NCBI GenBank assembly: GCA_032622095.1
Contig: CP136067.1
Coordinates: 128,295,990 to 128,359,989 of the forward strand
Direction of reading: 5' to 3'
DNA from: Siphonodentalium dalli
Lineage: Eukaryota; Mollusca; Scaphopoda; Gadilida; Siphonodentaliidae
DNA length: 64,000 nucleotides
Shown: piece by piece, positions 17,926 to 59,619 of the stretch
How the letters are laid out: the number at the start of each line of letters is the position of its first letter
Position numbering within the stretch: position 1 is the stretch's first letter
Position numbers and translations under genes: made by a program
The notes under the pieces: model-generated
Seen by the model: only the letters and a program-made list of their open reading frames with translations
What the model was told of the DNA's origin: nothing
The model's database searches: none

Positions 17926-18232
17926 ATGAACATAACACGTGCTCGCGTTTACATTCACATCATACTGATCGTCGCCGTAATGCGCAGTCAGGGTGCGTCT
18001 CGTTTCTCGAGAATTAGTGCACTCGACGGACTGAGCAGACCTGGATTATTCGAAACCACATCGGGAAGAAGTCGCATGGAATGTGCCACGGGCTGTATCA
18101 AGGTGGAGTGTGTGTCGTTTATCTACGACGCAAAGAAGAACACCTGCCTCTTTTATGATTGGCCTCTGTCGGTCACGAATGCAAACACTTTGCTCACAGA
18201 GGGCAGCACCGCACATGTCGTGGCCGAGGACG
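17926..18232 (+). CDS. First coding exon of a secreted PAN/Apple-like protein (copy 1, intact)
   Basis: ATG 17926 is chosen because paralogs align from here. The frame is open further upstream, but that part is not conserved. Residues 1-24 look like a signal peptide: a short basic start, then IHIILIVAVM and small residues. A Cys-rich PAN/Apple-like segment follows, with Cys 53, 57, 62 and 74 in ECATGC, EC and TCLFYDWPL. The exon ends at ACG|GTGAGT, a strong 5' splice site, in phase 1 after 102 codons. PAN modules bind proteins or carbohydrates outside cells, so a secreted or surface role is inferred. Later exons are not found, and a LINE now occupies the presumed first intron from about 18.4 kb. 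Copies at 40.4, 42.7 and 59.3 kb are damaged. Confidence 0.75.
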
Positions 18233-18439
18233 GTGAGTAATTTGGTCAAAATACATTTCTTTCTATTTAAAATTTTGTTTGTCTCATTTATGTACAATTG
18301 GGATTATGGCAAATTAGGTTGCTCTTCTCTCCATTCAATTACAACACAATATTATAACACGATAGTATATAATATGTGTAAATAGTTTTGTGTGTTAAGG
18401 TTTTACCAGATCAAAGGTTAAACAAAATCGTAAGCGTGG

Positions 18440-18895
18440 CATAACACACAAAAGAAAAAATAGCCGCCCTTGGTTCGCATATGACTGCGCGCGCACGCGA
18501 ACGGCGTATATAAGAGAACGTAAGCGATACCGCACAAACCCAACTGTCTCCAGCAAATTAAATATGATTAAAAGTAGACAACAATACAAAATTGCATTAA
18601 CCAGAAGTAAAATGAAATATAATGCGGGTATAAGAACAAAGTTACATAACTTTCGCACTAATTCCAGCAAAGATTTCTGAAAACTTTTAAAGAAATTAGT
18701 GGTCCCAACAAGACGCATGAACTATCACGCCCAACAGTAGAGAGCTTTAGATCGCAATACAAAAACGAAGAACTCGCGTTATCGACTATGGCAGATACAG
18801 GCGTCAGCCAAACCAATAACCCAACCAGAGTCCAACCCGGAATCACGACAGATGACAATTCTTTGAACGGGCCAATTTCGAAGGTGTCAGACCGG
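18440..18895 (+). pseudogene. LINE fragment, 5' part (linker before RT), interrupted by foldback element
   Basis: One frame reads RPWFAYDCARTRTAYIRERK and then basic, helical sequence, typical of the linker between endonuclease and reverse transcriptase in CR1/jockey-like LINEs. Stops and shifts occur at about 18679 and 18739. The sequence halts at 18895 where the foldback element begins and resumes at 20138. Confidence 0.7.
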
Positions 18896-20137
18896 TTTTC
18901 CGAAGACCTATTACTACGAAGGCCCACAACTCCGAAGACCCGATTCTCCGACGGCCCACAACTCCGAAGACCCGATTCTCCGACGGCCCACAACTCCGAA
19001 GACCCGATTCTCCGACGGCCCATAACTCCGAAGATCCGATTCTCCGAAAGCCCATAACTCCGAAGGGCCGATTCTCCGAAGACATATAACTCCGAAGACC
19101 TATAACTCCGAAGGGCCGATTCTCCGACGGCCCATAACTCCGAAGGTCCGATTCTCCGAAGGTCCGATTCTCCGAAGATTTTGTTTTATCGGGGTATTAT
19201 CGTTTACTAAATAGTGTACAGTCCAGTGGCGAAGCCAAGGGGTCCCAAAATTCCCACTGCCCCCATTAAACCTCTACTTGCTATTTCAGACAATATGGGC
19301 CCCTACCAAAACATGTCCAATGTCATGTAAACGCCCGGAAATCGTTCATGGGGCATCAAAATATTCAAGCTTTTCCTACTGCCCCCACCTAAATGGGAAT
19401 CCTGGCCCGCCACTGACTATACACCAGATACCATAACGTTACGTTGGCCCATGAGATGCCAGAGTAAAATGTACAGGGGTGAACGGGGAAGAACTTGTCG
19501 CCCCTGTGCATGTTAGGCTACTCTGACATTCTTGCAGCGTTTCGTTATAATATACCCGGAGCACACCAGTGGCGGAGCCAGGGTTACCATTTAGGGGTGC
19601 ACATTAATTAGCATATGTGGGGGATATGTGGGGGATATATCATGCATATGATATGCCGAAAGCATATCACGAAGGCCTGATTTGGGGAGAGCATACATGG
19701 GAGGGGTCGCCCCCAATCGTTGGTCCGGGGGCTCCCCTGGGCAGGAACACTGAATATTTGAATGCCTAGGAGGGATTTCCTGACGTTTACATGACATTTG
19801 ACATGTGTTTTGGGGGCGGTCTTCCCTAGGGCCCCATTGACCCCGCCACTGGACTGTACACTATTTAATAAGCGATAAAACATGATCTTCGGAGAATCGG
19901 ACCTTCGGAGAATCGGACCTTCGGAGAATCGGCCCCTTCGGAGTTATAGACCTTCGGAGTTATGGGCGTTCGGAGTTATATGCCTTCGGAGTTATGCGCT
20001 TTCGGAGTTATGGGTCTTCGGAGTTATGGGATTTCGGAGAATCGGGACTTCGGAGTTATGGGCTTTCGGAGAATCGGGGCGTCGGAGAATCTGACCTTCG
20101 GAGAATCGGACCTTCGGAGTTATGGTTCTTCGGAAAA
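18896..20137. mobile_element. Foldback (TU-like) element with minisatellite arms
   Basis: The element starts TTTTCCGAAGA and ends TCTTCGGAAAA. Left arm 18896-19175 and right arm 19883-20137 are inverted and consist of two alternating roughly 15-base words, CCCATAACTCCGAAG and CCGATTCTCCGAAG, with variants. Inner sequence is also inverted: AAATAGTGTACAGTCCAGTG near 19208 against 19846-19870, and a further weaker match between 19290-19400 and 19700-19835. The whole element is therefore one long imperfect palindrome. Foldback elements of this kind (sea urchin TU, fly FB) have tandem short repeats in their arms. No transposase is encoded, and long frames through the arms are artefacts. It interrupts the coding part of a LINE. 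No target duplication was identified. Confidence 0.85.
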
Positions 20138-21233
20138 ACGCTACGTAACCATTTCTAAAAACGAAATAGAGAACATCGGTAAATCGTTGACATCAGGCAA
20201 TGCCCCGGGAAGTGACAATGTTAATAATTCATTTATTAAACATTGCTGGCCATTTTAGGTGACTTTTATGCATCTTACTTTAATGTTATATTCGATACAG
20301 GGGTTATTCCAACTGACTGGAATATTGGAGTTATTAGCCCCATCTTCAAAAATAAGAATGACTCTTCAAATCCTGACAACTACCGCAGGATAACACTATT
20401 GAGTTGTATGTCAACATTTTTCACCCGTATTTTAAGCAAACGTATATCTGCTTACATGGAACAAAATCAGAATTTCAAGCTAGTTTTCGCAAAGGGTACT
20501 GCACAATAGATCATATGTTCAATATTTACACCCTGATCAACTTAGCAAATATCAACAGGGAGAACCTTTTCTGTGCGTTTGTTGATTTCTCCAAAGCGTT
20601 CAATCTATTGCCCGCAGCAACAAACTATCGGTCGAATCTATACTCGAAGTTTATGACAAATCTATTGTACTCATCATTACATACGGCGCCGAGATCTGGG
20701 GGGTTTGGAAACCTTGAAATAGAAACATGGTTTCTACGTTTTATTCTTAACTTGAACAAGTCGACTTCTCAACCATTTATATACGGAGAGCTGGGAAACC
20801 TACCAATCGTGACGAAAATCAAGGCAAAACCCCTAATATACTGGGGCAAGATATTAACTACAGAAAACACCAGACTCCCTATGTCCTTTACACCATTATG
20901 ACAGAATCAAGTGCGAAGGAATCGGTAAATATCCCATGGCTAACATTTGTGGTAACGGAACTAAATAATCTAGGTATGTCTTATACATGGCAGAATCAAT
21001 CAGTGAGCAGTGTCAAAATATTTTCTTGTGCTGTAAAACAGAAACTCATTGACGCATACATAACCGAATGGTATTCGTCTTTGGATACATTAAACAAATT
21101 TGCGTTTTATAGATGTATAAATCCGAACTTCGGTAGACCGAAGTATATATCCTTAGATGACAACAACGCCTTATTGACCCTCCTTAGGAGGTGTTTATAC
21201 ATTAGTCGGCTAAGATCCTATCCGATATAATCG
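20138..21233 (+). pseudogene. LINE fragment, RT and C-terminal part, with internal deletion
   Basis: Continuation of the LINE broken at 18895. RT fingers (ISKNEIENIGK, NAPGSDNVNNSFIKH) are followed by WNIGVISPIFKNK, NPDNYRRITLLSC, and motif A FVDFSKAFN at about 20578. The segment with motif B and the catalytic YADD-type box is missing. After about 20640 the text resumes at the RT end (IITYGAEIWGVW, in another frame) and the C-terminal domain (FIYGELGNLP, then PKYISLDDNN). There are several frameshifts. It is non-functional. Confidence 0.8.
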
Positions 21234-21540
21234 GTTAGTGATAACGGTTTTCATCTTCTGGCTTAAATTATTCAATACAAGCAACTTGTTGTCGTATAGA
21301 TTCTAATTCGCTCTGCATTATAATTATATCCTTATCTGGTGTCATGCCGTCATGGATGATTGCCTTTCAACAATTAACTCGAGCAATATTATTTTGTAAG
21401 CACCGATAGACCAGTCCGCTTTTGGCTTGTGTATATGAGTAAGTGTCTCAGTTTGATTGGCTCTAATTAGCTGTTCATCGGTGGTCACGCACCTTGATTA
21501 TAAGATATTATTATAAATACTGACTGATGGTGGTGTGTAA
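21234..21540. other. Spacer between LINE and Harbinger-like element
   Basis: No gene or repeat was recognised. It ends with TAA 21538-21540, the presumed target duplication. Confidence 0.5.
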
Positions 21541-21802
21541 GGCCCGTTCCAAACGACGGATTTTTGTCGACTCGAATCTAATACCAGACCCACAATTGTA
21601 TTAAATGCGTCTAAAATGCGACGTTTGAAACAATTAGATCCGTGTCAGACGCACCACAGACGAATCTCCTTCCAATTCAGACGAATCTTCGTCGGTGATG
21701 CGTCTGAAATCCGTCTTGGTTTCAAACGACGGATTTTTGTCGACTCGAATCTAATACATGTGACGAGAAGAGCCGAAAGTTGCCGAATAACGAATGCAAA
21801 TG

Positions 21803-21967
21803 ATATAAGGATTAACTGTCATGTGGACTATTTTTATGGAGATGTAACGGTGAGGTAAGTGGACATAACTTGTGTAAAACCCGAAGGGTTTTACATACAA
21901 GTTATGTCCACTTACCTCACCGTTACATCTCCATAAAAATAGTCCACATGACAGTTAATCCTTATAT
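21803..21967. repeat. Perfect long hairpin, 80-bp arms, 3-base loop
   Basis: 21803-21882 pairs with 21886-21967 without a mismatch. The only difference is a 2-base insertion in the right arm. The loop is GAA. It lies inside the Harbinger-like element. If transcribed it would give double-stranded RNA. Confidence 0.93.
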
Positions 21968-22580
21968 TTATATACATTTAGCGAAAAAGCCACTTTTGTA
22001 AATATATTTAAATCGAAAAGTGTATCGTGACAAGATCAGCCCAAAATACCCAATAGCACCCTTGGCAAAAGTTAATAGGAACAATTTCTCTTCATGTTGA
22101 AACCCGATGATGTATTAAGTCAATCCTGCGTGAGTCAAAATGCGCCCAAAGCATTACGCGTTCGTCTTTCCAAACCTAATGACGTTTCGTTGGTGTTATT
22201 AGCTTGGTGTTATGAGGCGTTGCGCATTCACCGAAAAATAACTGCAACTAGCCACGTGGGCGCCGACCAATCAGAATGCTGGATTTAGTGATGACAACTC
22301 TTAGTGTGTAAATATATGATAATGGTATAATAATGAGGGAGTTCCCCTTATCTGCGGAAATACCCACATTATGTCATTTGTCGCACGCTCTCTTTGTTAT
22401 AAAGAAAGATATATCTATAAGAATTGCTTAGGTAACAGTGTGAACATTTTAATTATTACGGTAGTTTGATGTCACTGACTCACATCTTATATATATAATA
22501 ATGTATACAGTATCAATGATTTATAATAATTCATATATATACCGGTATAAGGGATATGGGTTGTAGCAACTGATTTATAA

Positions 22581-25397
22581 TCTTCTATATCTATATTTGC
22601 GAATGTCTGTCTGTCTGTCTGTCTGTGTTCTATAGAAATTCACAGGGGACCATCTAGATGATGCCAAAGGGGTCTACTAGGAGTAGCTTTTTACGAGAAA
22701 GATAATGGTCGGGGTTAGAATTTTCTAAAGTGACGCCGTTGTTGTCAGGGGCAGAAAAGGGGGAGGGGCAGAAAAACAATTTGTCGCCGATTGCCACCAA
22801 ACTTATATATAATCATTCCCATAATATGAGGAATCTAATGGCGTGGTTTAAATATGGCAAAAGTCGCGCCGTTGGCGTCAGGGGTGCCCGGAAGGGGGGG
22901 GGGGCAGATTTTTTTTTCTGTCGCCGATTGCCACGAAACTTGCATATAATCATCCCCATGATATGAAGAATCCAACGGTGTGGTTTAAATATGTCAAAGT
23001 GGCGTCGTTTGAGACAGGGATGAACGGAAGGGGAGAGGGGCACCAAAATTGATAAAACTTATTTTAGCGCCGATTTCCACCAAATTGATATATATTCTTC
23101 TTCATGATACAAGGAATCTAATTGTGCGATTTAACAACGCCAAATTGTTGATTTGAATGAGAGATTGGGAGGGGGTGGGCACTAAATTTGATAATAAGTC
23201 GCCGATTGCTACCACACTTATACAAAATCATCCCCATGGTATCAGGAGTCTAATGGTGTGGCTTTTATCTGTCAAATACGGCCCCATTCGAGCCAGGGTT
23301 GCATTGAAAGGGACAGGGGCACCACAATTGATGCACAATTTTTTTAGCGCCAATTTCCACAAAATTGATACACGTTCTTATCCATGATACGAGGAATCTA
23401 ATCGTGATTTAAAGACGCCATAGTGGTGCTGTTTGGGTGGGAGATGGAGACGGGAGGGATTGGCACCAAATTTGATAAAAAAAAATTGTTTAGTCGCCGA
23501 TTATCGCCAAACTTATAAACAATCATCTCCATGATATCAGGAGTGTAATCGGGTGGTTTAAGGATGTCACAAGTGGGGCCATTCGAGTCAGTGGTGTATA
23601 GAGATGAGAGGGACACAAAATATTATATCTATATGTTTAGTGCCGATTTCCACCAGCTTGATACATATTCTTCTCCGTGATACGAGGAATCTTATGGTGT
23701 GGTTTAGATACACCAAATTGGTGCCCTATGGGTGAGAGATTTGATACGAATCTGTATACTCGCCAATTTTCACCAATTTCATATATATGCATCTCTAATC
23801 TCTAATGAGTCTTAGTGTGTGCAGCTTGAGTCCGAAATAGGGACGGGAGGGTCACAAAAATTGATACAAAATATTTTTAGTACCAATTACCATCAAATCC
23901 AGACACGTTCTTCTCAAATGATACAAGAAATAAAATCGTGCTGTCTGTCTGGCTTTGTGTCTGTCTGTGTGCGTTCTATAATAACTTCACGCGGTACAAT
24001 CGAGATGGGACCAAGGCGTTCTAAGAGGTGTAACGTTTTACAAGGAAGATAATGGTGCGGGTTAAAATTTTCTAAAATGACGCTGTTGGTGGGAGGGGAA
24101 ATTAAAAAATTAGGTGAAATAGTTTTGTCGCTGATTTCCACCAAACGAATACATAATCACCTTCGCAATATGGCGTTGTTCGAGTCAGCGTTGCATCAAC
24201 AATTGATTTAATAAACCAAATTCCACCAAATTCATACACGTTTTTCTCTAATGATATACCATGAATTAAATCACATTTGGTGTCGTTTGCGTCACGGATG
24301 GCGAGCGGATATGCACTATCATTGATAAGATTGCTATTCGCCGATATCCACATATAAGTTATATACAGTCACCAGGCCATCTCCATATCATTTTAAGTAG
24401 TTGAACGTTCACATTTCACAATCCCGACATATGGTGACACACATAAGTCACTTGAACAATTGTATCTTCTTAACAGTCATATTTATATGGGAATGGCAAT
24501 CAAGGCATTCACACAATGAGCTAGCAAATAGAGATAACTAGAAGAACCATTAAACGTATAGTTATCATTCTATTGAAGAGATAAATATATTCGTGCAAAC
24601 TGAGAGACCTCGAACCGTCAGAGGATTGCATATATATAATAACAAAATTTAGTCTTTTCCATTCAATACAGTTTCCACAAAAAGTTACAATTTGTCAAGA
24701 GATATGGAAGGCCTGTTCAAAAATAGTGGTCACAGTGTGCAGTCAAATATAGTTTCTTCTGATATACAAGAAAATGCAGTTAGTAGCACAAGACTTTTCA
24801 GGATCCTACCAATACTGACATCTGACAAGGGTTTTAGTACAGACTCATCGACTGACATAAACAACTCAAAATCTCGCTCTGTGCCTGGCACATGTAGCTG
24901 ATATATGTGCGCAGCAACATTTCGTTTAAACTAAGAATATTTAGCAAATTTATAGCACCATGAACTTATAGCACTTGGAAATTTCTTTGAAACATCTGTA
25001 TCTTCATGGAGATATGATAGCCAGGTGTCCTCTAGATCTTAGTCCAACCCACTAGATTGATTGATACATCTCAATATGTAAAACCCAATTATCATCTTTT
25101 ATCGAACTAATGTGTTTATGATGTTCATGTATCATATTATAACGTCTAATGTATACGCAATTGTAAATAAATAAATACTTCATTATTGGTGGAACGGATT
25201 AATCGCGATAAACAGAATGACAATTGACAAGGTGAGCCACTACTTATATTCCATGACTGTAATAATCATGTTTTGTGATGCTATTTGAATATACAATTTA
25301 TGAGAAAACGTATAACACTTTAAGCAAGAGCATTCTCTATTCCCAACAAATATCCACAGCATACATTAACCTGGGCAACGCCGGGTAACCCTGCTAG
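22581..25397 (+). mobile_element. Non-autonomous Helitron with exact ends
   Basis: It starts TCTTCTATATC and ends with a hairpin (ACCTGG, loop GCAACG, CCGGGT at 25369-25386) followed 11 bases later by CTAG. It sits between A and T. The flanks GATTTATAA and TAATTCAT join into the normal satellite unit, which proves both ends. No Rep/helicase is encoded. A (GTCT)n tract near the 5' end and internal tandem repeats fill the body. The 5' leader (22605-22745) recurs at about 23945-24090, so the element looks like two units fused head to tail. Confidence 0.85.
22786..24350 (+). repeat. Tandem repeats inside the Helitron, two alternating unit types
   Basis: Units of about 120-150 bp begin at about 22786, 22921, 23069, 23200, 23347, 23495, 23641, 23760 and 23880, then 24127-24340. 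Type A has TCGCCGATTGCCACCAAACT and ATCATCCCCATGATAT. Type B has GCGCCGATTTCCACCAAATTG and TTCTTCTCCATGATACGAGG. After two A units they alternate. Confidence 0.8.
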
Positions 25398-26267
25398 TAA
25401 TTCATTTAGACCGATATTCCTTATTATAAGTGCTAGGGGTGGTAGTCTCTGATGTATAATAATTAATATATACCGGTATTACTTATTATAAGGGGTCGGG
25501 GTGGTACCACTGATTTATAATGATTCATATTTACCGGCATTACTTGTTATGAGGGGTATATGGGTGGTTACCTCTTATCTATAATAATTCATATATTCTG
25601 GTATTCCTTATTATAGGGGGCAGAGTGATAGCCTCAGATTTATAATAATTCATATAAACCGGTGTTACTTATGACTATGAGGGGTAGGGAAATAGTAGCC
25701 TATGATTTATAATAATTCATATATACCGGTATTCCTTATTATAAAGGATATAGGGTGGTAGCCTATGATTTATAATAATTAATATATTCCGGTATTCCTT
25801 ATTATAAGGGGTAGGGGGTGGTAGTTTCTGATTTATAATATTGTATACCGGTATTTACATGCACGGTATACACATAGAAGGCAATTTGTTGCACGATATA
25901 ACATTTATTTGTTGCGCCTATTATAGTTTATTATATATCTGTATGTACTATATACATTCTCATATACATGAGCACATATATTCGCACTGCAGTCGCGCAT
26001 ATATAATATATATATACATAATTTATATTGTATTTTAGTATATATATATGTATAACATATACCGGTATATATAGGCCTCTATATCTACGCGTGACCATAT
26101 TTTGACGGTAACCGGGAATCCACCTTTAAATAAATCTACCAATGTATTAGATTCGACGCGACAAAGATGCGTCCGTCTGTAACAAAATCGACCGCAGACG
26201 CATCACCGACGGATTTAATACAATTAGATTCGAGTCGACAAAAATCCGTCGTTTGGAACGGGCCTAA

Positions 26268-26767
26268 CGCAACCAAAGGAGGGTTGTTAGCAGGTGTCAT
26301 GCAGCCACATGTACTCTGCACGTGCATGGTACATTTGTTGCGCATTCAAGGGAATTCAATGTACATGCACGTATTCGTGTTCATGTATGTTCATATATAT
26401 GGAAGAAATGGGATGGCACATTTATATGGATTCAAACTTAATTGACAATTAGTTCAATAATCTAATTTTGAATATGTATAGTCCACGCTGAGGGACGGTC
26501 TGGAGGGCCTGCCTTTGAGAGGGTGTGACTGTCCATCGTTGGAATTTCCAACTGCACCCCATCTTGAATCTCACGAAACTCACAAGTTCGCGTAATTCCA
26601 TTTACACACCACTTGGGCTTAAATAACTTTCCACTCAAATGCCTGGATGGCAGCCTTATATACTCTAATCCGCTAGGCGGCCCCGTATTGAGCGACTTTT
26701 CTTTTTATATCTGAACCAGTGTCTAACCCAGGACATTGCCCAATCCTAACATGTACAGTACAAAGCC
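26268..26767. other. No gene recognised
   Basis: Right flank of the Harbinger-like element. Nothing was identified. Confidence 0.45.
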
Positions 26768-27112
26768 CGTGGTTTTTTCAAAACCACGCGTGGCCAACAT
26801 TTTAACACGGAAAAAACACGGTAAAATCGCGCGTGGTCTTAGCGTGGTCAACTTCAGAAAAATGACCAGCGTGTTCAAACACGGCGTGTACATGCCGTGG
26901 TCATCCGAGTTCACGCCGTGGTCATCCGTGTTGAAGTCGTGTTCTTAGCGTGATCAATTTCGGCAAAATGGCCAGCGTGTTCAAAAACGGTCTGAACACG
27001 GCGTGTACATGCCGTGGTCATCTGAGTGCACGCCGTGGTCATCCGTGTTGAAGTCATGTTCATGCCGTGTTAATAGCGTGGTCAGTCGTGTTTACGGCGT
27101 GGTCTGCATCCC
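26768..27112. repeat. CGTGTT/CGTGGTC word-repeat block
   Basis: It opens with a 9-bp-arm hairpin (26768-26788, CGTGGTTTT/AAAACCACG). Two longer units of about 110 bp follow (about 26838-26945 and 26946-27060), sharing AAAATGGCCAGCGTGTTC, CACGGCGTGTACATGCCG and GTGGTCATCCGTGTTGAAG. The G+C content is higher than in the surroundings. It could be the end region of a DNA transposon. No coding function was seen. Confidence 0.75.
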
Positions 27113-28544
27113 AGTCAGGGACAGTGCGGGAGGTGTGAATAATCCGCGACATCAAAGAGTTGCCGCAGTATTACTTGCGGTAGGATTTTTTCGGGTATAT
27201 TTGGCCCGGATTGATTTCGTCAATGAATAAAGAATTGTCAGATAAAATCTTTTATAATAAAAAACAATTTCATATATTGAATTATATATATATATATGCA
27301 TATTTGTTAATCCGTGTCAATGGCCTTTATATCCGTGTCATGTTTTGTTGTCGCATTTTATTTTAGTTGGCATTAATATTTTCTTGTGTTTCCCGGCCAT
27401 AGCTAACAGACAGACAAACAAACAGAAGTCCCAAACTATATATTAGATCAGTTGTGGGTACCCGTTTCAAGGTGAAGGTCACCTCGGGCGGAAAAACTGA
27501 CCCGATGAAAATCTCCCCAAATTCCCAGGAACCCCTAAGTACGAACACAGACTTAAGAATCACACAACACGCTCATGTCTGTACACAGGCACAGCACGCT
27601 CATGTCTGGACACATATACGCTCTTTATCAACGACACTGCGGATACGAACGCTCTTTAACTATCACGCAATTAACCCATGAATTCCCATTGCGGTGGCGG
27701 GGGGTTGGAGAATGAGTGCTCTGACATTCTCAGAAGCGGTCCGATGACCATTCCCGCGGTTTTTACCCTCAGATAGCAAGTTTGGGCTAAATCCGCCCGG
27801 CAGTTTTCCCGGCCATAGCTAACAGACAAACAACAAACAAACAAACAGAAGTCCTAAAATATAAAGTAGATTAAATGCAGATATTCTCGAATGTGAAACC
27901 GGTTTCGTTAGTTTACCGTAGACAGTTGCGTCCCGAATTGAGAAGTAAATAATTACAATTGAGCTTAGTTTAGACGGTACTTTTGATTTGTTTGAGATTT
28001 TCGGCGATGCTACATTTCCCCAGTTGGCATAGCACCTGAATACTGACTTATCAGGTTATACGCAACAGAACAAGTCCATAATATAAGTTAGCCTGTGCCA
28101 CCGCTAACAAGATATCATATTTGTAGTTTTAGATCGGTTATCATTGCTTTAACAGTGATCTAGAACATTCTTAACCATGCTAAATGAACAATAACTCTTA
28201 AAATGACTTAAATGTTCTGCAGTTTCGTCAAAGGTCACAATATTGAAAATAAAATAAAAGTTACCTAATTATGAATTTTATCAAGAATATACTAAAAGTA
28301 TAGTATAATGATAATATGAAAGTGATATTACCCACAAAACACTTTGTGTGAACCGAGAATTTAATTCAACGCAGAAGTCTTGTTAAAGTAAACTTATCGG
28401 GGACTCCTCTGTGTTGAGTGCTTTGCGTATAGCACACTTTACTCACTCTACTGTATCATAATATGGATTTTTGTTTATTAACAAACCGTACGGTCTTGAC
28501 AATAACATGCTATTTATGATTTTACACAATATGTCTATAAATTT
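27113..28544. other. No gene; one short duplicated segment
   Basis: About 50 bases at 27388-27438 (CCCGGCCATAGCTAACAGAC, then CAAACA and AGAAGTCC) recur at 27806-27862. No other feature was recognised. Confidence 0.5.
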
Positions 28545-46055: not shown

Positions 46056-46059
46056 AAAA

Positions 46060-46090: not shown

Positions 46091-46122
46091 AAAAAAATAA
46101 ATATATATATATATATATATAT
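46056..46122. repeat. (AAAT)n and (AT)n microsatellite
   Basis: AAAT units are followed by (AT)n. This explains the Tyr/Ile-rich frames on the minus strand here. Confidence 0.95.
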
Positions 46123-48560: not shown

Positions 48561-48564
48561 TTAA

Positions 48565-50423
48565 GGATATCCTAAACGTGACAAAGATGGCCGAATGAGT
48601 TTTTATACCGCTCTCTCAGATAAATGCCAGCCATGCATTACAAGACTATATTTCCAATCGACATGAAATTTCACAAAGATATAGGAATATGATTGAACAA
48701 TTTTTTGACATCACAACTATATTTTTAAAAGATATATTTGATTGAGAAAATTAACTGGAAAGTGAGCGAAATTATGCAATCACCAGAAGTCAAAACTAAT
48801 AAAGAAAATAGTTATAATTATTGTGGCATCTTATAGATTAGGATTCCAGGATGAGGAGAGGGACCATCATTTTATAAACTAACTCACTGTTTTAGCTACA
48901 AATCAATTGAGTTGAAGGCACCCTCCATCATTTAAACACAAATATGTGGCCATTTGCTTTTTGGGACTATTGTTTGGTATGGGAAGCCAAGTTGGCAGTG
49001 ATGTGAGCTGAATCATTAGGATGTATAAGGCTGTCTATTTTGCCACTATTTTAACAATACGTCAGGCACAATTGATACAGTATAACACAATTAAGCAAAA
49101 CATGACACTGTAAGCTATATTTCCAACATGCCCTACGATATCAGATGCATCATATCTTGTGATACTGATGCATTTTGACACAAATGGCCTGGCATACATT
49201 CATACTTCCGAGATTTTCTAACATAAATTACCTCAGACGGTTGAAAAACAATACTAAGAAGCTAGCATATAGTGTAATTTGAAATAATTATAGTTTAATT
49301 AGCCCTAATATTGTTTTTAAAAATATTTTGAACTCATTTAGTCATCCATCAAACCGAAACCAAAACGAGATTTCGACATGTTTTTGTTTTTCTGAGAAAG
49401 TTGATCAAACAATACAACAGCCCTAAAAATGAACTTGGATGAGCGATTGCGCAGTTGTCTATACATGCATGAATTACAGATGTTGTGGATTATGTTCGCT
49501 GTGTATGATGCGTGTAACCTTGTTTTGATTGTTTTTAATAAGAATAATTTGCATCTGCAAAGTTCTGCAATGAGGGAAACGCGTGCATCACTAAAAATAG
49601 ATTTGGGAAAGACCGAAAATCCGTACCCTCTAACAAAATAATACTTGATAGATATACAAATTATGGACTAAATTCTGTTTATATATGAATACCGTGTTCC
49701 AAGTTGTAAATCTAATGCATATTTAGGTGTTTTGCCATGTTTAAAAACAAAAATTATTTAAAGAGTGAATTATTTCATACTTGTGAGAAATTCGTTCGGA
49801 GGGTATTCCGTGTTTTTAGTCACGTGATGTTTACTATCCATTTTGTCAAAGTTTGCCTTCAAATATTTTTTTTTCTAGGAAATTGTCATTTAAATTAGCG
49901 ATGTTCTAAGGTTAGTTTTGGTCATAAAGTACTTAAATATGGCAATTAGTGGTGACTATATATTCTCAGATTTAGTATATGTGAACTACAAATTGAAGTT
50001 CCCTATTTTTCGAGTGTTGTTGTGGATTTTGAATATAGAGCGGATACGACCACCTTTTACACGGTGAATTTCTGACACAAGAAACATTATAATGAAAAAG
50101 CAAGGTCCCTCTCAATATATTGGAATATCAAAGCATCTATCGTTAAACTATTATAGTAAAAACATGTAGTAATTTTATAGATATGAGTACTGTAAGAAAG
50201 TGTGAAATTGAAAACAACAATTGTTTCATAATTTTTTGTATATAGATTCCTGTAAGATGAGACAACATTTTACATTTCAAAATTATCTATGTTTTATTAT
50301 TATTATATTGTATTGGTTCATTGTGGCCATTTTGCAAACCTTATAGTGAATTTGAGCTCATTGTTTTTATAAATTGTCGGCCATATTGGAAGAAATTTCA
50401 ACTCTGTCACGTTTAGGATACCC
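48565..50423. mobile_element. TTAA-flanked non-autonomous DNA element
   Basis: Inverted termini GG(A/G)TATCCTAAACGTGACA (48565-48583 and 50405-50423) differ at one base and are flanked by TTAA on both sides (48561-48564 and 50424-50427). A TTAA duplication is used by piggyBac and Kolobok. The end sequence does not decide between them. No transposase frame was found in its 1.86 kb. Confidence 0.7.
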
Positions 50424-50427
50424 TTAA

Positions 50428-51845
50428 TGCATACCTATGAAACGCGTATTTGACTTACCGCAGGAACTTTATAATGCAGAAGAAATCAATTATGTGGACA
50501 ATATTTACTACGTCCGGTTCGGAAATTATGTGTATAATTAGAATGATTTTCCCATGAATAAAATTAAGGCTTCAGATCACCAGGTGACCTTTTAGTCCTT
50601 TAACAGATATGAAGCAATCTGTTATAATTATATACGTGCATTTTCGTAAGTGAAGCGCACGACCCTGTAGAGGACAGTCCAATTCTCCCATATAGACCAA
50701 GTCCTCGACCTTTACCCTGAATGCCAAAACGAGGCTTAAAGATTCTTTCAATGCCAAACTTCGTAACACTTGCCAAATGAATTTATCGCGCGCGGTGTTC
50801 AACAGTGCACTGCGTAAAATGGCGACGGTATCGATGTTAGAACGTGTTATGCTGAACTGGGAGTTTATTTAAATAAACTTTTAAAGGATTATAATTAAAG
50901 TATAATATGAATCGTACGTGACACGTAGTGGAGCAAACACACACGCTGTGCCTCAAATTTACCTTTTATCGCCGAAATAACACTACGAATAATATGTGTA
51001 ACATTATGCAGTGGTTAACACAGAGACGACATGACAACTTGATAAAACGTGTCGTGGATTATGCAATCGTGTCTGGATTCTGGTCCAGAAATCCAAAATG
51101 ACTTCAGAAACCGTGTCATGACCTCTTTTTTTCTTCATTAAGCTAACCAAAGAAATTGGTCTAATTGAAATTAATAGACCTAAATCACATCGTAAGTTGT
51201 GAATTTGCTACTTTCATTTTCATCGCGATGTTTCATTCCCAATTCCGAGTTTTTTGCAATCTCCACACTGTTTCTAACCGGAAGTCACGTGATATTTTCT
51301 ACAAAATCCATACCCGCGATCTAAAAATTCACTGACGGATATAGAACAAAATGACGTCATTCACCTGCCTTAGGAATAAGCACCCTTGGTGGTTGCTATT
51401 AAATCTGACACAGTTGAATATACATGACATGGAATTTAAAGTGACATACACGCGATTATATTTGTATGAATTTAATTGCAATACCTTCCAATTATGTGTA
51501 CCCGTGACATGATAGCGTGTAAACAATGTTGAATCTGTTATCATTGTTGAACGAATTGCATCAACTGGGTGTGTACTACAAGTAAAATCGCGCCATATTC
51601 AGTTATCAACTAATCACACACATGCAGCTAACTTCCGCAGACTTCTAGTAGAAATGATACCGTTTACTTACGTAATGACGTAGTTAGATGCAAACATGTC
51701 TAGTGATTGATGTCATAATAGCAAACATATGCGATGTGAACGAAATTTCGATCGAATATATCAAAGAATCGTTAGGTGAACTGATGAGCATATATGTTCG
51801 CTTTTTAAATCTCATTTTGAGTAGTGGGCATTGTCGAAACAATGG
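50428..51845. other. No gene recognised
   Basis: Short frames only, ending at a LINE fragment. Confidence 0.45.
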
Positions 51846-51851
51846 GCTGTT

Positions 51852-52099
51852 GAGACGATAAAACCCATCTTCAAGGATCAGGGGACCCTAATTTTACTGA
51901 TTCATATAGAGGAATCACACTTCTAAGTTGTTTTGATAAACTTTTTACATCAGTTATTAATAATCGAATATCGTCATTTGCAGAAGACAATGACTTGACA
52001 AATAAAATTCAAACAGGTTTTCGGAAGGATAACTCAACAATAGATAATATAAATATTCTACATGCTCCGATTGTGTATGGCTGCAGAGCGGACGAATGA
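51852..52099 (+). pseudogene. LINE reverse-transcriptase fragment
   Basis: An upstream frame reads IKPIFKDQG. After a shift it reads DPNFTDSYRGITLLSCFDK, then NNRISSF and QTGFRKDNSTIDN, which are the RT finger motifs preceding motif A. It stops before the catalytic region. The matching C-terminal domain appears 660 bases later. Confidence 0.78.
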
Positions 52100-52753
52100 T
52101 ATATTGTACTTTATTATATTTTCAGTAACTTTTTATGCAAAAATAATAATCGTATCCCCACTCCCGGAAGTGCCACGATGTTATCCTACTCCCAGAGGTT
52201 TATCCTACTCCCAGCGATGACGAACTATTTATCCCAACCTCGCACGTTCCGAATTACGTAATTCGAAGTGCACGTTTTGGGTTACTCCCCTTACACCAAA
52301 ATAATTGTCTCAGTTCCAGTGCATAGTCAGATAACACAAAATACATCACCAAAAACACAGACCACCAATGTGTTATCGACATCAAATTCCAGCTCAGTGA
52401 ATTTGCAGGATCAACACCAACTGGGAAACATGTTTGGTTACGCTACACTTCGGAATCCAAAGATCGAAATCGCGATAAACAATTGTTCCCACAAGTGCAT
52501 TCGCACCAAGAAAATGAAAACAGTGTTGAGATCCACTTCAGTATCTTCAAGCAGTTCCACTTCAAATTCCACTGATATTCGAGTTCATATTCCAAATGAA
52601 AGTGAGCAGTGATATCTCATAGAACTAGCAACGCTTATCCACACAATGCCATTCCAAACAGTTACTAATTTAATCAATAAAGTGTGTTGTTTGTTTGAAA
52701 AATTCCTCCGAAAATCCCCTTTGAAGTTGGTGGCATGCAATAGGAGAATATGT
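52100..52753. other. Unassigned insert between two LINE pieces
   Basis: It contains a perfect 16-bp palindrome, CGAATTACGTAATTCG (52250-52265), two near copies of TATCCTACTCCCAG (52174-52215), and a Ser/Thr-rich frame at 52268-52612 (114 residues) with no recognised relative. It may replace or interrupt the LINE RT core. Confidence 0.5.
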
Positions 52754-53812
52754 TCACTTGAAATTCTGTAAAATATTACTGGGAATGAAATCAAGCACGC
52801 CAAGTTATATGGTTTATGGTGAGTTGGGGAGATACCCGATGAATATTGCTATTAAATGCAGAAATATTTCTTATTGGTCTAAGTTAGTTTCACAAGAGGG
52901 GTCTATATTAGCGAAAGACATATACAAACTTGTGTTCGCATGCAGTGACACAGATTCATTCGCGGGAAAGATAAGATGGATAGAACATATTAGATGTATA
53001 ATGAATGAAAGTGGTTTAAGTGAAACATTCACCGCACAAACACCCTTGTCGAAATCGGAAATAAGGAAAGTTAAAACAGTTTTGATTGAACAGTTTGAAG
53101 ACAGTTGGCGAATTGAAATAGGGAATTCATCTCGGGGTTTACTATATCGACAAATTAAACCAAAATTGAATTTTAGTAAATACCTCACTGAGTTACCGCG
53201 AACATTATCTGAGTATCTTGTTAAGATTAGAACAGCTAACCACAGACTATCTATAGAGTCAGGACGATGGCAAGACCAGGTTAAAGAGAAAAGAATATGC
53301 AGGGCATGTAGGGAAGGACTAGGGGATGAATACCACCATGTGTTAATTTGTAAAGAATTTCACACTCTGAGGGCTAAATATATACCTACGTACTACTGGG
53401 AGTCGCCTAACCTGACAAAATTTTGTGGGCTAGTAACAGTGGAAAATATGAGCCTCCTTAAGAAAGTATGTATTTTTCTAAAGTTATCGCTAAGAAATTA
53501 CCCCATGTAATACACACAATCGATGCCAAATATACATGATACAGCTTCATGCAAAGGGGAAAACCCAGCTTGACAAAGTCGACTAAATCGGACGGAATTT
53601 TATGACACCACAGCAGGCGAATGAGCGTGGCCAAAAAAACAAACAAACAAACAAACAAATAAACAAAACAAATAATATAATATAGGCAAATCGGGGGTCA
53701 CTTCTTGTATATATCTATTTGTATTATATATATGTAAATATGTTTTGTTCATGTACTAATGCACTTATGTTCTGTATTGATTTGCAGCTAAGGCATAATA
53801 AACTTATCAAAC
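52754..53812 (+). pseudogene. LINE C-terminal domain and 3' end
   Basis: The open frame to TAA 53508-53510 (about 250 residues) begins HLKFCKILLGMKSSTPSYMV, then YGELGRYP. Later come KIRTANHRLSIESGRW and the Cys motif RICRACREGLGDEYHHVLIC, then YIPTYYW. This domain follows RT in the CR1-like LINEs of this window. It is the best-preserved copy and has no stop, but the RT core in front is missing. AATAAA near 53796 and an A-rich end mark the 3' region. Confidence 0.82.
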
Positions 53813-54052
53813 AGAGAAATCAGTCAATGAAATGACGTCACGTTCCTTATACGGGGTAAAATACTATGGCGCGCGCGGCTATAGTAAAAAATTCATGAGT
53901 GACGTAATCGATTTACCTTATTTGGGTTGTTATCTTATCATTGCGCGTAATTTAACGGAAACATTTAGGTCAATATTCAGAATCGGAACATCTTCTCAAT
54001 GCATTTTATTAGAGTTGTGTCGTGACAAACTGTTGTGGAAAATATAATAAAC
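53813..54052. other. Spacer
   Basis: No feature was recognised. Confidence 0.4.
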
Positions 54053-54205
54053 ACAATAGTTAACTGTCATCAGCGACGAACGAAGTTTCTCCTCTCGTGA
54101 GATGCGAGGATTATTTTTCACTCGGCTAACGCCTCGTGAAAAATAATCCTGCGCATCTCACTCGAGGAGAAACTTCGTTCGTCGCTGATGACAGTTAACT
54201 ATTGT
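54053..54205. mobile_element. Long hairpin (MITE-like), about 69-bp arms
   Basis: 54053-54121 pairs with 54136-54205 except for a 2-base mismatch and one extra base. The 14-base loop can fold again (GGC-TAAC-GCC). Ends ACAATAGTT...AACTATTGT. It abuts the broken 5' side of the next LINE fragment. Confidence 0.9.
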
Positions 54206-54209
54206 CTAT

Positions 54210-55495
54210 TATTGTCTTCCGCCAAGCATTTGATAGATGCTATGTGGTTGAATCTTATGCAAGCAGATATAAACAGTAAGATTCTAAGGGTAATACGAAG
54301 CATGTTCTATGTTCAAATTATGTGTGAAAAACAATGATTCGCAATCAGTCTTCTTTATCAGCCAAATAGGCTTATTTCCAGGTGAGCCAATGTCACCTCT
54401 ATTATTTTCTTTGTTCGCAGATTATTCCGAGGCATGGAATCTCCTATTTAATACAAAGAAAACGAAAATGTTAGTTTTTACTAACAAATTGTTGAAAAAC
54501 TTATCAGCATTCACATATCGGGGCCATGCAATACAAATTATAAAAGAGTATAAATACCTTGATATTAAATTATTTTACGACGGTAGATTTTGTCAATCGA
54601 TTAAGCAGACCAATAGTACAGCCACGAGAGCCATGTGTGTCCCTTTGAATAGAACAAGAAAGCTGCAGTTGCCTCTATGCATTATGTTTAAATTGTTTGA
54701 TTGTGTGATCATGCCGATTATGCTGTATGGCGGTGCTGTTTGGTGTATCGAGAAAACTAAAATTTTGGAGGCCATTCATCTTAAATTCTGCAAAAGTATA
54801 TCACAACTATGACGCCCACATGATATATATGCAGAATTGGGGAGATAGCCCGTAATGATCGATATTAATTGCAGAGCAATATCACATTAGTCAAAACTGA
54901 TCACGCGAAGGATCAGAATTAGCCAATAATGTATTCATTCTACTGAGGTGTCTCAATGTTAGTGATGCCTTACTACAAAACACGATTAAATGGATTTCTA
55001 TTTTAAAGAAATGCTCTGCGAAGTAAATATGGCAGACATGAACCGCATGACAGCGAAATTAATATAGAACAACACGCAAGTTGCTTCTCCGGGAATCTAA
55101 ATATTTCTACATCAATCCGTGCCATACTTTATTGAAACATAAAGGATTCTGTCATATTGAGCCGATACTTGTTATATAGTATATGCCCCCTCATCTGGCT
55201 ACGTATTTACTGAAATTTAGAATAGCAAATCACAGACTACCGGTGGAGCAACGCAGATGAAATAAAAGTACATGTAAAGACTTGAAATGCCAGTTATGTT
55301 TCCCCAATGTCTGTGATGAATACTAATTTGTTATTTTGTGTACATAACTTAACGACATGCGAGCAATCTATATCCCGAAGTATTACTGGAAAAATCCTAA
55401 CAGAAATATATTATACAGATTGTTGTCACGGCCAAATATAAGTATATTGATAAGAGTGACCATTTTCTTAAAATTAGCGTTTAAAAAGTTACCAT
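54210..55495 (+). pseudogene. LINE fragment, RT core to C-terminal domain, decayed
   Basis: It begins FRQAFD (motif A, about 54217), then NLMQADINSKILRVIRSM, FPGEPMSPLLFSLF (motif B, 54378-54420), NTKKTKMLVF, and IMLYGGAVWC before LKFCK at 54788. The catalytic box between motif B and the KTK segment is deleted. Beyond 54812 the C-terminal domain is recognisable only in pieces: KFRIANHRLPVEQ at 55225, CQLCFPNVCDEY and YIPKYYWKNPNRN to about 55410. Many stops. Confidence 0.8.
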
Positions 55496-56975
55496 GGCGC
55501 AAGTATGATATTATATTGTATATTATATGAATATTATATGACTTATATATCATTTAAGGAAACCTATTTCTGAATATATTAGCATTGTTTGCCTTTATTA
55601 TTAATACCATGTAATATGATGGAAGAATTTATCGATGTACATACATGTTATGTCTTGTATGTATATGAATATACATTGTGGCATGTTACAACTTCGATGT
55701 TAACTTGGCAATTAAACAATTCTACTAAATTGTACTTTAATCCTGTGGTGACAGTGCCAATGACTCAAATTGTATCCCGTGCTGTTTAGTATGAACGGTG
55801 AAGTTGGTGTTTAGAGCGGCTTATATCGAAATACTCATTTATAAATGTTTTGGTCGCAATTAGTGCATTGTTGGGGACATATATTGGGCTAATAAGGCAA
55901 ATTAAGCAAACTAAGGACTAAGAGATGGTCAACAAAATGGAACGGAAAACCAAATGAATAATAAGTTGGTAAATAGTTATACCATACATTGATATGTCAA
56001 GATAGTCAAATAGTCAAACCTGAAATACTCCTCTGACGCAGAATGTCAGCTCATGGGTTCCATATATCGATGCGTGTGTGACCCAGATATGTGAGATTCG
56101 ATTTCTTGGGATCACATTTTCGAAGACGTACCGCTTATCTTTCGAACTATTAGAAAATATCAACCCAACACTCATAAGACTAGATATTCGTTATATTGGC
56201 CAATTCAGTATTATATTTGACTGAACGTTGGGAAATTTGACAAAACACTATATATTCTACATCAAATATTGGTTGTATGGCAAATAAAACTATTTGAACA
56301 ATCAAAACATAGTTACTCGTGCTGTATATTCAGCAATAAACTGTTGTGATTCAGTACACAATTTAAAATTACCAAATTTGCTAGCATGTAAATGTAGTGA
56401 ACGAAGGCCCTCTATTTATCAAAGTAAAACTATGCTGAAATGTATTTCTACCGCGGAAAGTGATTTGGAACCCATATTTCGCCCAACATCCTTGCATCGA
56501 TCGTATGCTTCCAGAGAGCAGCTCAAAGCGAAATATTGACACACACACTAGTTACTTATGTACGTGCATGGCAACTGCTTTCTCTCTCTCTCTCTGAAAT
56601 GTGTTATCAGTAACAATAGAGGCTGTAAGAAACCAACGATATCGACCGATATAGCTTCAATGTATCTATTACACCACATTACCCCTTTACGTAGAAACAA
56701 AATATCAAGTTAGTGGATAAGTGTCAGGGATAATTTATATGCGGAATCAGTGCATAATTAATCAAAACTCGTGTGTTCTCTCTAGAGACATCCATAAAAT
56801 AGGTATCACAACATAGAAATTATCGAACTTTCCTGAAGTGTGTTCCAGTACAATCATATGCGAGAGTTTAAGAACTGACACACGATATATAGTAACTATG
56901 AACAAAGAAGTCTAATCAATGCAAACTGACATTTAATATCTACGAACAACTTTCCTTGTTGAGCTGACAGCTGAA
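55496..56975. other. No gene recognised
   Basis: A short (CT)n tract lies at 56580-56595. An 81-codon frame at 56294-56539 has no recognisable relative. Confidence 0.45.
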
Positions 56976-57083
56976 TTGGCCGCCGTGGTACTTACAAAAG
57001 TGAATGAGTCACATTCGACATTACACCCATCGATATTTTGCATGAAATACATACAATGTACAGCGATCTCCTCTAGAATTCCG

Positions 57084-57335
57084 AACAAAAGAGCCAGTGT
57101 GCTTCTTAATCCGACCAACAAAGGCGCCAGTGTGCTTCTTAATCCGACCAACAAAAGAGCCAGTGTGCTTCTTAATCCGACCGACAAAGGCGCCAGTGTG
57201 CTTCTCAATCCGACCAACAAAAGAGCCAGTGTGCTTCTTAATCCGACCAACAAAGGCGCCAGTGTGCTTCTTAATCCGACCAACAAAAGAGCCAGTGTGC
57301 TTCTTAATCCGACCAACAAAGGCGCCAGTAGCTCT
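57084..57335 (+). repeat. 33-bp minisatellite, two unit types in strict alternation
   Basis: About eight units of 33 bp lie in a 66-bp dimer pattern: AAAAGAGCC and AAAGGCGCC versions of (...)AGTGTGCTTCTTAATCC. On the plus strand a frame from 56976 to 57338 reads NKRASVLLNPT and NKGASVLLNPT in turn. Other frames on both strands are open too, because the period is divisible by three. No flanking coding evidence supports a gene. Confidence 0.88.
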
Positions 57336-57338
57336 TGA

Positions 57339-58639
57339 GTTACCAATGTCACAGTCTCCGACACCTTATCGGACCCACAAGCTATTAGTTAAATTCAACA
57401 TCAATCATGCCGCCTATATGTCTTCCGGGAAACGTTATGTTCTTGTCATATATTCTAAAATATGAGAACTTTCTGTCTTAGTTTCAAACGAAGATTGAGA
57501 TAATAGTATTCAGATTATAGAGAAGTTATCATGAAATCTCAGAACTCAAGCTCAACACGACGTCTCATCCGACGCGGAATTATTATTTCATGCACATAAG
57601 TAATGCATATGATTCCGGGGAGAGATTATGCATCTTTTATAATAAAAATAAAAAGATAGGAATTTACATGATTCGCCGGAAAAGCTTTTTGTTGAGTGAG
57701 GTTTTGGGAGAATGTCAAATTTATTGCAAACGTCGTTGAACAATATTTATGTTGTCTTTTATTGTTAATTTGATAAACAAATGGTTCTGCAAATTGCTAC
57801 CAACAAACACTAGAATATACAATGAAAATGTTTGATCCATTATCTCGCAGGCATGCAGTAATGATGATTTCAGAGCGTAGACAGAGCTCATGCAATAGCT
57901 GGGTTCATAACCTAGATAATGTTCTGTTTTAAGAAAATAGTTCATGTCAAACTCTCTATCGACCTATACCTGAAAAGTGCTTTCTTTTTATTTGTTTAAA
58001 CCACTTATTTTACTAAATTCTGTTCATAATTTGCAAGACAGTTTGAAACATAACTTAATTTAAAATGCCCCAATATTTAGGCATCTCTTATTCTCGTGAG
58101 GGAATTGGCAATTCGGTCCCTATTTGAGGTATCTTAAACTCTGGAATCAAGTTTGCTATCAAGGTAAGAGATACCAGACTTTCAAAAACATACAATGGCA
58201 ATCATCTTTGTCCTAGTAGTCCAAAGGCTATACCAGAGGCAATGCATACACAAGTGTTATCCATCTTCAAAAGTCTTCCACGTGCGTACATGGCGTTGCA
58301 AGCGATGTTTTTTTTAAATATTTTTATCATGATCTGGTTGATACAAATATTTTTGATTCGACAATGAATGATATTCTGATCGCCTACCGATATAATCCTT
58401 CATACAGAACATCAGTTATATCGTCACCACAATGTACGCTCTACGACTCATAAAAACATAAATACAATGCACACTCTATACTCTGACAACAGTCCCCAAA
58501 GAAACCACACAACGTATAGTATTCTAAACAAGGCGCGACATCTGACAGGTATATACACACAAACGTGTAAGCACAATATCGACGAATACTTTTGAAATGC
58601 ACAGATCAATAATACGTATATAGTCACAACAGGATCACC
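57339..58639. other. No gene recognised
   Basis: AT-rich. Short frames only. Confidence 0.45.
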
Positions 58640-58880
58640 TAAGCGTGCCAGTTTCCGTGACTTTGTCCCTTAATTGTTCACAATTGAAATGTATAGTTGA
58701 CTTAAATTAGCGACAATCTTTGTCTTGGGATGAAAGGAACTTTGATACCAGTAAACTAGACTGGAATATAAAATATTGTTGATATAGCAGACGTCATAAA
58801 CTCGTCGTAGATTCAACTTCAGTGTCAATTGGTGAACCACCCCACGTGATCATAATGCCAACTTCGTATTTATTGACTGG
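58640..58880 (+). promoter_or_regulatory. Upstream block of PAN copy 4
   Basis: TTTGTCCCTTAATTGTTCAC, GATGAAAGGAACTTTG and a CACGTG at 58843-58848 line up with 17280-17430 before copy 1. Confidence 0.55.
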
Positions 58881-59011
58881 GTCCAATGCACCACCCCTCC
58901 TCACTTGTTCCAGCAGCTTGGCAAAAACATGAGATACAGTTCAACTGACTACCAACTCAATGGCTCATGTAAAATTGTTTATTCCAACAATGACGTGCGT
59001 TACTGAATGAT

Positions 59012-59045
59012 TATAAAACTACATAATAGCTGTACAATCCTGGGA
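59012..59045 (+). promoter_or_regulatory. Likely core promoter of PAN copy 4
   Basis: TATAAAACTAC at 59012-59022 with ACAATCCTGGGACTTGG after it, matching the arrangement at 42569-42616. Confidence 0.6.
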
Positions 59046-59084
59046 CTTGGATTAACAAGAACCATATGGATTGTTTTATATTGT

Positions 59085-59290
59085 ACAAACCACGTTTGTG
59101 ATTTACTCAACGGCGTTCGTCATTTTCGGAATTGAAGAACTACTTAATACCGGCGAGTTGCGTGTACATTCCGTAGACTTAGTTCGACCTTTGGGGACCA
59201 CATACATTCAGAACAGGCCAGTTACCGTTGTTGCATTTTCCAATTATGTGATTTACGCAACGGCTTTCAACGCTTGTTCATTACATACAG
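59085..59290 (+). repeat. Internal duplication in the leader of PAN copy 4
   Basis: GTGATTTACTCAACGGCGTTC (59096-) and GTGATTTACGCAACGGCTTTC (59249-) head two related segments. Copy 1 has only one counterpart (TTCAACGGCATTC, about 17839). Confidence 0.6.
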
Positions 59291-59292
59291 CC

Positions 59293-59619
59293 ATGTCGGT
59301 AGCGATACACATAGCACGCGCGTTTACTTTCACGTCATACTGATCGTCACCGTCATGCACAGTCATGGTTTTTTGTATCGTGCATGTATATTCTTGAGAA
59401 TCAATGCGCTCGACGGAATGAGCAGGCCTGGATCATTCGAAACAATCTCAAGAAGTCACTACATAGACTGCGACACGGGTTGCATCAAGGCAGAGTGTGT
59501 GTCTTTTATCCACGACTCAAACAGGAAGATATGCCTCCTTTATGATTGGCCACTGTCGGTCACGAGTGCACATAGCGTGAGCACTGAAAGTAACCTTGCG
59601 TGTGTCGCGGCTTAGGACG
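59293..59619 (+). pseudogene. PAN-like exon, copy 4 (start lost, stop before the donor)
   Basis: Aligned with copy 1, the start codon is ATA at 59305-59307, and a small indel follows. An upstream ATG at 59274 happens to be in frame with the conserved part. The hydrophobic FHVILIVTVM, INALDGMSRPGSF and a PAN segment CDTGCIKAECVSFIHDSN are readable. TAG at 59613-59615 replaces the GAG before the donor ACG|GTGAGT (59620). It is more diverged than copies 2 and 3. Probably non-functional, unless an upstream start and a different splice are used. Confidence 0.82.

What the first reader, a model, noticed from the sequence alone, without database searches (positions are those of the whole stretch)
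17926..59619. Four copies of a PAN/Apple-like first exon, only one intact
The same signal-peptide plus PAN-like exon with a GTGAGT donor appears at 17.9, 40.4, 42.7 and 59.3 kb. Related promoter and intron stretches are also repeated. Each damaged copy is broken differently: truncation, a 1-base deletion, or a lost start plus a stop. No downstream exon is evident in the window. That leaves two readings: a decaying gene cluster, or an array of alternative first exons feeding one distant body. A fast-turning secreted protein family fits recognition or venom/mucus-type roles, but that is speculation.
Basis: partly seen in the sequence, partly recalled or inferred. Interest (0 to 1): 0.75.

Follow-up and report, generated by a model that had tools for sequence, protein, structure and literature searches.

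The report
Spare lectin first exons, one intact
An animal gene for a secreted lectin-like protein has four copies of its first exon but only one body, which lies just past the window; three of the first exons are dead, and in this gene family first exons seem to have been swapped between bodies.

Summary
The four exon copies are real. A (17926-18232) is intact, B is truncated, C has a one-base deletion, D lacks a start and has a TAG. All keep a phase-1 GTGAGT donor. The exon encodes a signal-peptide-like start and a PAN_1 domain (21.5 bits, cut-off 21.4).

The missing body lies outside the window: two intact exons, 0.4 and 4.1 kb past its end, encode the halves of one C-type lectin domain (CTLD). 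Joined to A they give an open 245-aa frame (Lectin_C 28.8 bits, cut-off 22.6). The genome holds 144 matches to exon 1; of 134 outside a mobile-element set, 104 are followed directly by a CTLD exon on the same strand.

My reading: one lectin gene with a 46-kb first intron holding three dead first exons. An inverted second copy has the same layout. In 20 genes, exon-2 and exon-3 distances agree but exon-1 distances agree with neither; the closest relative of this body carries another type of first exon (p-AU 4e-5), pointing to first-exon swapping. No RNA data: splicing of A to the body is inferred.

The parts
17926..18232 (+). Copy A: intact first exon, signal-peptide-like start plus PAN_1; ends in phase 1
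   Evidence: open, joins in frame to exons 2 and 3
18233..18238 (+). Splice donor GTGAGT of copy A
18233..64000 (+). Inferred first intron of the A gene (continues 390 bases past the window; exon 2 at window-equivalent 64391-64579 and exon 3 at 68062-68303, i.e. L050:391-579 and L050:4062-4303, both outside the window)
   Evidence: splicing inferred, no RNA
40371..40467 (+). Copy B: 5'-truncated first exon, donor at 40468
42659..42973 (+). Copy C: first exon with a one-base deletion near 42762, donor at 42974
   Evidence: same in the second copy of the locus
59319..59619 (+). Copy D: first exon without start, TAG at 59613-59615, donor at 59620
   Evidence: TAG shared with D'
40608..41054 (+). 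Intron stretch of B shared with C (pairs with 42995-43323, 89-94%)
42995..43323 (+). Intron stretch of C shared with B
17557..17820 (+). Direct repeat upstream of A (17557-17684 and 17691-17820, 82%)

Best explanation
Copy A is the live first exon of a three-exon gene for a secreted protein with a PAN domain and one C-type lectin domain. Exon 1 splices in phase 1 over about 46 kb to exon 2 (first half of the CTLD) and then to exon 3 (second half and stop), both just past the window. B, C and D are dead copies of the first exon inside that intron. They exist because in this family the first-exon cassette (upstream DNA, signal peptide, PAN) is duplicated and re-paired with lectin bodies partly independently of them. 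The protein is most likely a secreted recognition lectin. Shown: copies, lesions, donors, body exons, open joined frame, family-wide pairing, discordant histories. Inferred: splicing, promoter activity, secretion, sugar binding, and recombination in long first introns as the swapping mechanism.
For: Body exons beyond the window with matching phase; 738-nt joined frame, 245 aa, one terminal stop; Lectin_C 28.8 bits, cut-off 22.6; best PDB match by sequence codakine, E 0.0012. 30 of 30 fetched loci (the best 30 of 144; 23 distinct proteins) have GT at the same place. 89 of 135 first exons have an exon 3 within 50 kb downstream on the same strand, random mean 0.7, maximum 4 in 1,000 draws. No body remnant between the first exons in the window. 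In both copies of the locus A and the body are open: 6 synonymous and 6 nonsynonymous differences, pS 0.037, pN 0.0105, p 0.03, while D's TAG is in both, so D has not been the partner for some time. Exon 1 versus body discordance: Mantel exon 2-3 rho 0.32 p 0.001; exon 1-2 rho 0.09 p 0.24; exon 1-3 rho -0.05 p 0.65; body tree joins this gene to C7:98.73 at 100/98.9, exon-1 data reject that pair, p-AU 4.2e-5.
Against: No RNA. The intron would be long against the family (90 paired distances, half of them about 15 kb or less). Full-length PAN_1 scores 19.6, under the cut-off of 21.4. Body exon 2 was the least conserved of the three between the copies (7 of 189; A 3 of 307). Identity between the copies is uneven, 87-99.94%, with the highest value in non-coding DNA around C, so low divergence of an exon is weak evidence. 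Swapping tests are post hoc, on 20 genes that I picked and 78 columns for exon 1; the alternative exon-1 grouping was not recovered as one clade (p-AU 0.078). AlphaFold gave no usable model (pLDDT 32).
Confidence: 0.65

Rival explanations
1. A decaying tandem cluster of complete PAN-CTLD genes: A, B, C and D each had a body, three bodies were deleted, and the surviving body was D's. A would be an orphan exon.
For: Most first exons of the family have their own body (104 of 134); three of four copies here are broken; D is the nearest first exon to the body (8.4 kb).
Against: No remnant of exon 2 or 3 between the copies, although A-C and A-B dS is only about 0.2. The body is open in both copies of the locus although D's TAG is in both, and A is open in both.
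Confidence: 0.25
2. A working array of alternative first exons that feed one body, with two or more in use.
For: Same donor phase in all four; one body; runs of two or three open first exons before one body at C7:203.09-203.18, C4:52.96-52.98 and C1:41.15-41.20 Mb.
Against: Three of four copies here cannot give a full first exon, and C's and D's lesions are in both copies of the locus. At the other loci a missed body is not excluded, and for one exon (L074) the donor pattern used found nothing.
Confidence: 0.06
3. Stand-alone one-exon genes for a small secreted PAN protein, ending at the TAA that follows the donor-like GTGAG.
For: TAA follows in all four window copies and the domain ends there.
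Against: Of 30 family loci GT is kept in 30, the TAA in 14 only, and those 14 are the window locus with its duplicate and the mobile-element type. Body exons in matching phase follow most first exons.
Confidence: 0.04

Closest known systems
Secreted C-type lectins of invertebrates (codakine as nearest solved structure; bivalve lectins reviewed in PMC12842671, passages seen)
   Same: One CTLD above Pfam's cut-off; sugar-site motifs QPN and FAD each occur among bivalve lectins in that review's table; large lineage expansions are known there (PMC10140915, passages).
   Different: A PAN domain on the first exon; CTLD split over two exons; first exon and body with different histories. The three phrase forms 'PAN and C-type lectin', 'PAN-CTLD' and the like gave 0 papers.
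PAN/Apple domain proteins (Pfam PAN_1; PDB hepatocyte growth factor weakly, E 1)
   Same: Core of the PAN profile with four cysteines in the exon.
   Different: Only 36 residues align, at the cut-off; joined to a C-type lectin domain, not to kringle or protease domains (those partners are recalled).
Alternative-first-exon clusters such as the protocadherins (recalled)
   Same: Several first exons of one splice phase ahead of one body.
   Different: Three of four are dead; no sign that more than one is used; elsewhere in the family most first exons have a body of their own.
Snail FREP/CREP recognition proteins (recalled; CREP mentioned in PMC9334734 passages)
   Same: Secreted, lectin-type C-terminal domain, diversified N-terminal part.
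   Different: N-terminal PAN instead of immunoglobulin domains.

Membership tests
PAN_1 (PF00024) | Score at or above Pfam's gathering cut-off (21.4 bits) | tested here: inconclusive
   Exon alone 21.5 bits; full-length model 19.6; other family exons up to 22.4
PAN_1 (PF00024) | PAN/Apple fold | tested here: inconclusive
   AlphaFold model unusable, mean pLDDT 32.4 with 4 rows; no fold search made
C-type lectin domain (PF00059) | Score above the gathering cut-off (22.6 bits) | tested here: met
   28.8 bits over profile 5-107 of 107 for A joined to exons 2 and 3
C-type lectin domain (PF00059) | Canonical sugar/calcium motifs EPN or QPD, and WND | tested here: not met
   QPN and FAD at these places; such variants occur in bivalve lectins; binding itself is not testable here
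Secreted protein | Cleavable signal peptide | not tested
   Hydrophobic start read by eye in A and in relatives; no predictor available
Alternative-first-exon array | Two or more usable first exons before one body | tested here: not met
   Of four, only A is intact
Alternative-first-exon array | Transcripts that join different first exons to one body | not testable with these tools
   No RNA data

The most novel reading that the evidence does not exclude
In this animal the first exon (promoter region, signal peptide and PAN domain) is a shufflable cassette: it multiplies by itself, is swapped between C-type-lectin bodies through their long first introns, and has also entered a recently spread interspersed repeat of at least 23 kb that carries an open copy to seven contigs. 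The window is a snapshot: one body with one live and three discarded first exons. Such re-pairing would change when and where a lectin is made, and its N-terminal domain, without touching its sugar site.
Probability: 0.35. Interest if true: 0.68.

Novelty: new variant of a known kind. Interest (0 to 1): 0.45.

Why it matters
Expanded lectin families are common in invertebrates, but how new members gain new expression and new N-terminal domains is rarely visible. Here first exon and body show different histories in a family of about a hundred genes, beside a locus with surplus first exons in front of one body. If RNA bears it out, this is a directly testable case of exon shuffling and promoter capture in an immune-type gene family.

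Tried and rejected
One-exon gene ending at the TAA after the donor: rejected, because the TAA stands in 14 and the GT in 30 of 30 loci.

Body within 10 kb at C7:151.9 and C6:25.4 Mb: none recognised (Pfam was run on one frame of L039 only); later placed exon 2 of these genes about 10 and 18 kb downstream.

A Lectin_C family search alone (150 scored of 1,097 candidates) did not show the pairing by eye; it appeared with the family's own exons.

Viral contigs: no confirmed relative. PDB with the exon alone: nothing credible. Structure: unusable. Molluscan haemocyanin as a hint to the organism: no match, which the tool says shows nothing.

Papers: listings only; 0 papers for the phrases. Passages only of PMC10140915, PMC12842671, PMC9334734. 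I claim absence from print only for the phrases.

Counting notes: 9 of 144 exon-1 matches were set aside as the mobile-element set by identical score; C7:98846129, a 95% relative of that set, stayed among the other 135. Two overlapping matches at C7:3.40 Mb count once (135 becomes 134). One search used the first 101 of 150 exon-3 hits and part of the 115 exon-2 hits, and one of its 70 rows is the window's own duplicate (D'). The lists are capped and that has a threshold, so pairing counts are lower bounds. In one search the length of C8 was typed as a round number.
Full report
OBSERVATION. A is open from 17926 to its donor at 18233; B keeps the last third; C has lost one base; D has no start and a TAG one codon before the donor. 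Matches within the window have E-values of 3e-15 to 4e-42. The exon just reaches Pfam's cut-off for PAN_1 (21.5 against 21.4 bits). Pairwise dN/dS of 0.23-0.55 shows descent from exons under selection on the protein. A-C similarity runs from 7 nt before the ATG to 24 nt past the exon end; B and C also share intron sequence.

THE FAMILY. The window lies on contig C7 of a 2.23-Gb genome in nine contigs. The A exon has 144 matches there, 108 of them by my count of the table ending at the same last residue, and 9 with a stop inside. In 30 of 30 fetched loci (the best 30; 23 distinct proteins) a GT stands at the same place in phase 1: GTGAGT 24, GTAAGT 2, GTACGT 2, GTGAGG 1, GTTCGT 1. TAA follows directly in 14 and not in 16, so this is a splice donor and not a stop. 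At a relative on C9 two exons with the two halves of a C-type lectin domain follow the PAN exon; alone, the second half scores 15.3 bits, under the cut-off. Searching with that half gave 21 matches at E up to 1, many downstream of PAN exons, and one (E 0.77, 37% identity) 4.1 kb past the end of the window.

THE BODY OF THE WINDOW'S GENE. In the adjoining 10 kb (L050 = C7:128359990-128369989) exon 2 is at 391-579 and exon 3 at 4062-4303, in phase 1, with acceptors ending CGACTAG and CGTTTAG and a donor GTGAAT. Exon 2 was recognised by tblastn with its C9 counterpart (E 9e-5). A + exon 2 + exon 3 is an uninterrupted 245-aa frame: Lectin_C 28.8 bits (cut-off 22.6), PAN_1 19.6 (cut-off 21.4); nearest solved structure by sequence codakine, E 0.0012.

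PAIRING. With the nine matches of the mobile set put aside, 89 of 135 first exons have an exon 3 within 50 kb downstream on the same strand; random placement gives a mean of 0.7 and at most 4 in 1,000 draws; 20 have one upstream on the same strand and 10 downstream on the other strand. With exon 2 added (115 matches), the next feature after 134 merged first exons is exon 2 in 98, exon 3 in 6, another first exon in 14 and nothing in 16. The window locus stands out: four first exons, then one body. Between the first exons no trace of exon 2 or 3 was found.

THE SECOND COPY. All four first exons and the body recur, inverted, at C7:91.476-91.541 Mb. Identity is uneven: 96.3% over 2.5 kb around A, 99.94% over 3.2 kb around C, 95.9% then 86.7% around D, 93.5-95.9% around the body exons; window 44000-47000 matches over its full length at an identity printed as 100%. 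C's deletion and D's TAG are in both; D's missing start is not, since D' has an ATG. A and the body are open in both (245 and 246 aa), with 6 synonymous and 6 nonsynonymous differences, pS 0.037 and pN 0.0105, p 0.03. This favours A as the live first exon, but the uneven identity weakens it. A true duplication or a retained haplotype: I cannot tell.

FIRST EXONS AND BODIES HAVE DIFFERENT HISTORIES. Over 70 paired genes the similarity of exons 2 and 3 to the window gene correlates (rho 0.66), exon 1 with neither (rho -0.16; limits in the counting notes). For 20 genes with all three exons read, chosen for easy reading and not at random, Mantel tests give exon 2-3 rho 0.32 (p 0.001), exon 1-2 rho 0.09 (p 0.24), exon 1-3 rho -0.05 (p 0.65). 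The clearest case is the gene at C7:98.72-98.73 Mb. Its body is the nearest relative of the window gene's body among the 20 (40/62 and 48/80 identical), but its first exon matches the window's in 31/74, the C7:133.93 gene's in 55/75 and the mobile-element exon in 62/75. The bodies pair at 100/98.9; the first-exon data reject that pair (p-AU 4.2e-5); forcing the other grouping on the bodies is rejected at p-AU 0.027. Against my reading: that first exon did not form one clade with the C7:133.93 type in the best tree (p-AU 0.078, not rejected), the tests are post hoc, and exon 1 has only 78 columns.

MECHANISM. Recombination within long first introns, between members in tandem or inverted arrays, is the simplest mechanism (inference). 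It gives bodies new first exons and leaves surplus first exons behind, as here. Runs of two or three open first exons before one body at C7:203.09-203.18, C4:52.96-52.98 and C1:41.15-41.20 Mb fit, though missed bodies are not excluded.

FUNCTION. A secreted PAN + CTLD protein is most likely a recognition lectin. Its sugar-site motifs (QPN, FAD) occur among bivalve lectins (passages of PMC12842671), but do not fix specificity; nothing here shows binding, and nothing bears on venom or mucus.

VERDICT. Observation confirmed, interpretation partly supported. Locally this is birth and decay with probably one live gene; the decoupling of first exons from lectin bodies in the family is the interesting part, and RNA can test it.

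Noticed in passing
L034-L038, L041-L044, L048, L049 (C5:197358726 to at least 197382041; C7:153606466 onwards; seven contigs in all): A recently spread interspersed repeat carries an open first exon of this family. Nine matches on seven contigs have an identical score; five loci compared are 99.9-100% identical over 3,273 bp (output cut, pairs with L032 and L033 not seen); two copies are 99.8-99.9% identical over at least 23 kb. Its left end occurs 207 times in the genome (88 + 119, reversed control 0) and lies 4,544 bp before the exon in 8 of 9 copies, the ninth being past the printed list. Right end and class unknown.
   Followed up: partly
L034:2196-3273 and L042:193-2584: A 71-75-bp minisatellite in that repeat is made of copies of the 3' end of the PAN exon with its donor: the end of the exon at C7:98.72 Mb matches it at 79-92% step after step.
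   Followed up: partly
window 4864-13675: Retroelement with split direct repeats (4864-5543 = 11008-11686 at 98.4%; 10095-11010 = 12760-13675 at 99.0%). Its frames match HeH above the cut-off, RVT_1 just below and phage integrase weakly. It looks like the Ngaro group of DIRS elements (label recalled).
   Followed up: partly
C7:91476031-91541209 (minus) and window locus: The whole locus exists twice, inverted, 37 Mb apart, with identity varying from 87% to 99.94% along it: segmental duplication with conversion, or a retained haplotype.
   Followed up: partly
C7:203090120-203176963, C4:52964830-52975326, C1:41152546-41202416: Two or three open first exons in a row before one lectin body.
   Followed up: partly
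window 18860-19211 and 19916-20140: Arrays of a 16-bp unit holding TTCGGAG, inverted to each other, within a LINE-like insertion that follows copy A's donor.
   Followed up: no
window 22584-24159 and 62044-63070: Related satellite-like blocks, about 74% alike, downstream of A and of D.
   Followed up: no
window 46604-46896: Dispersed repeat of about 280 bp with copies at 83-88% on all nine contigs in a list limited to 40 scored candidates.
   Followed up: no
window 57051-57362: Array of a 33-bp unit that is open in several frames.
   Followed up: no
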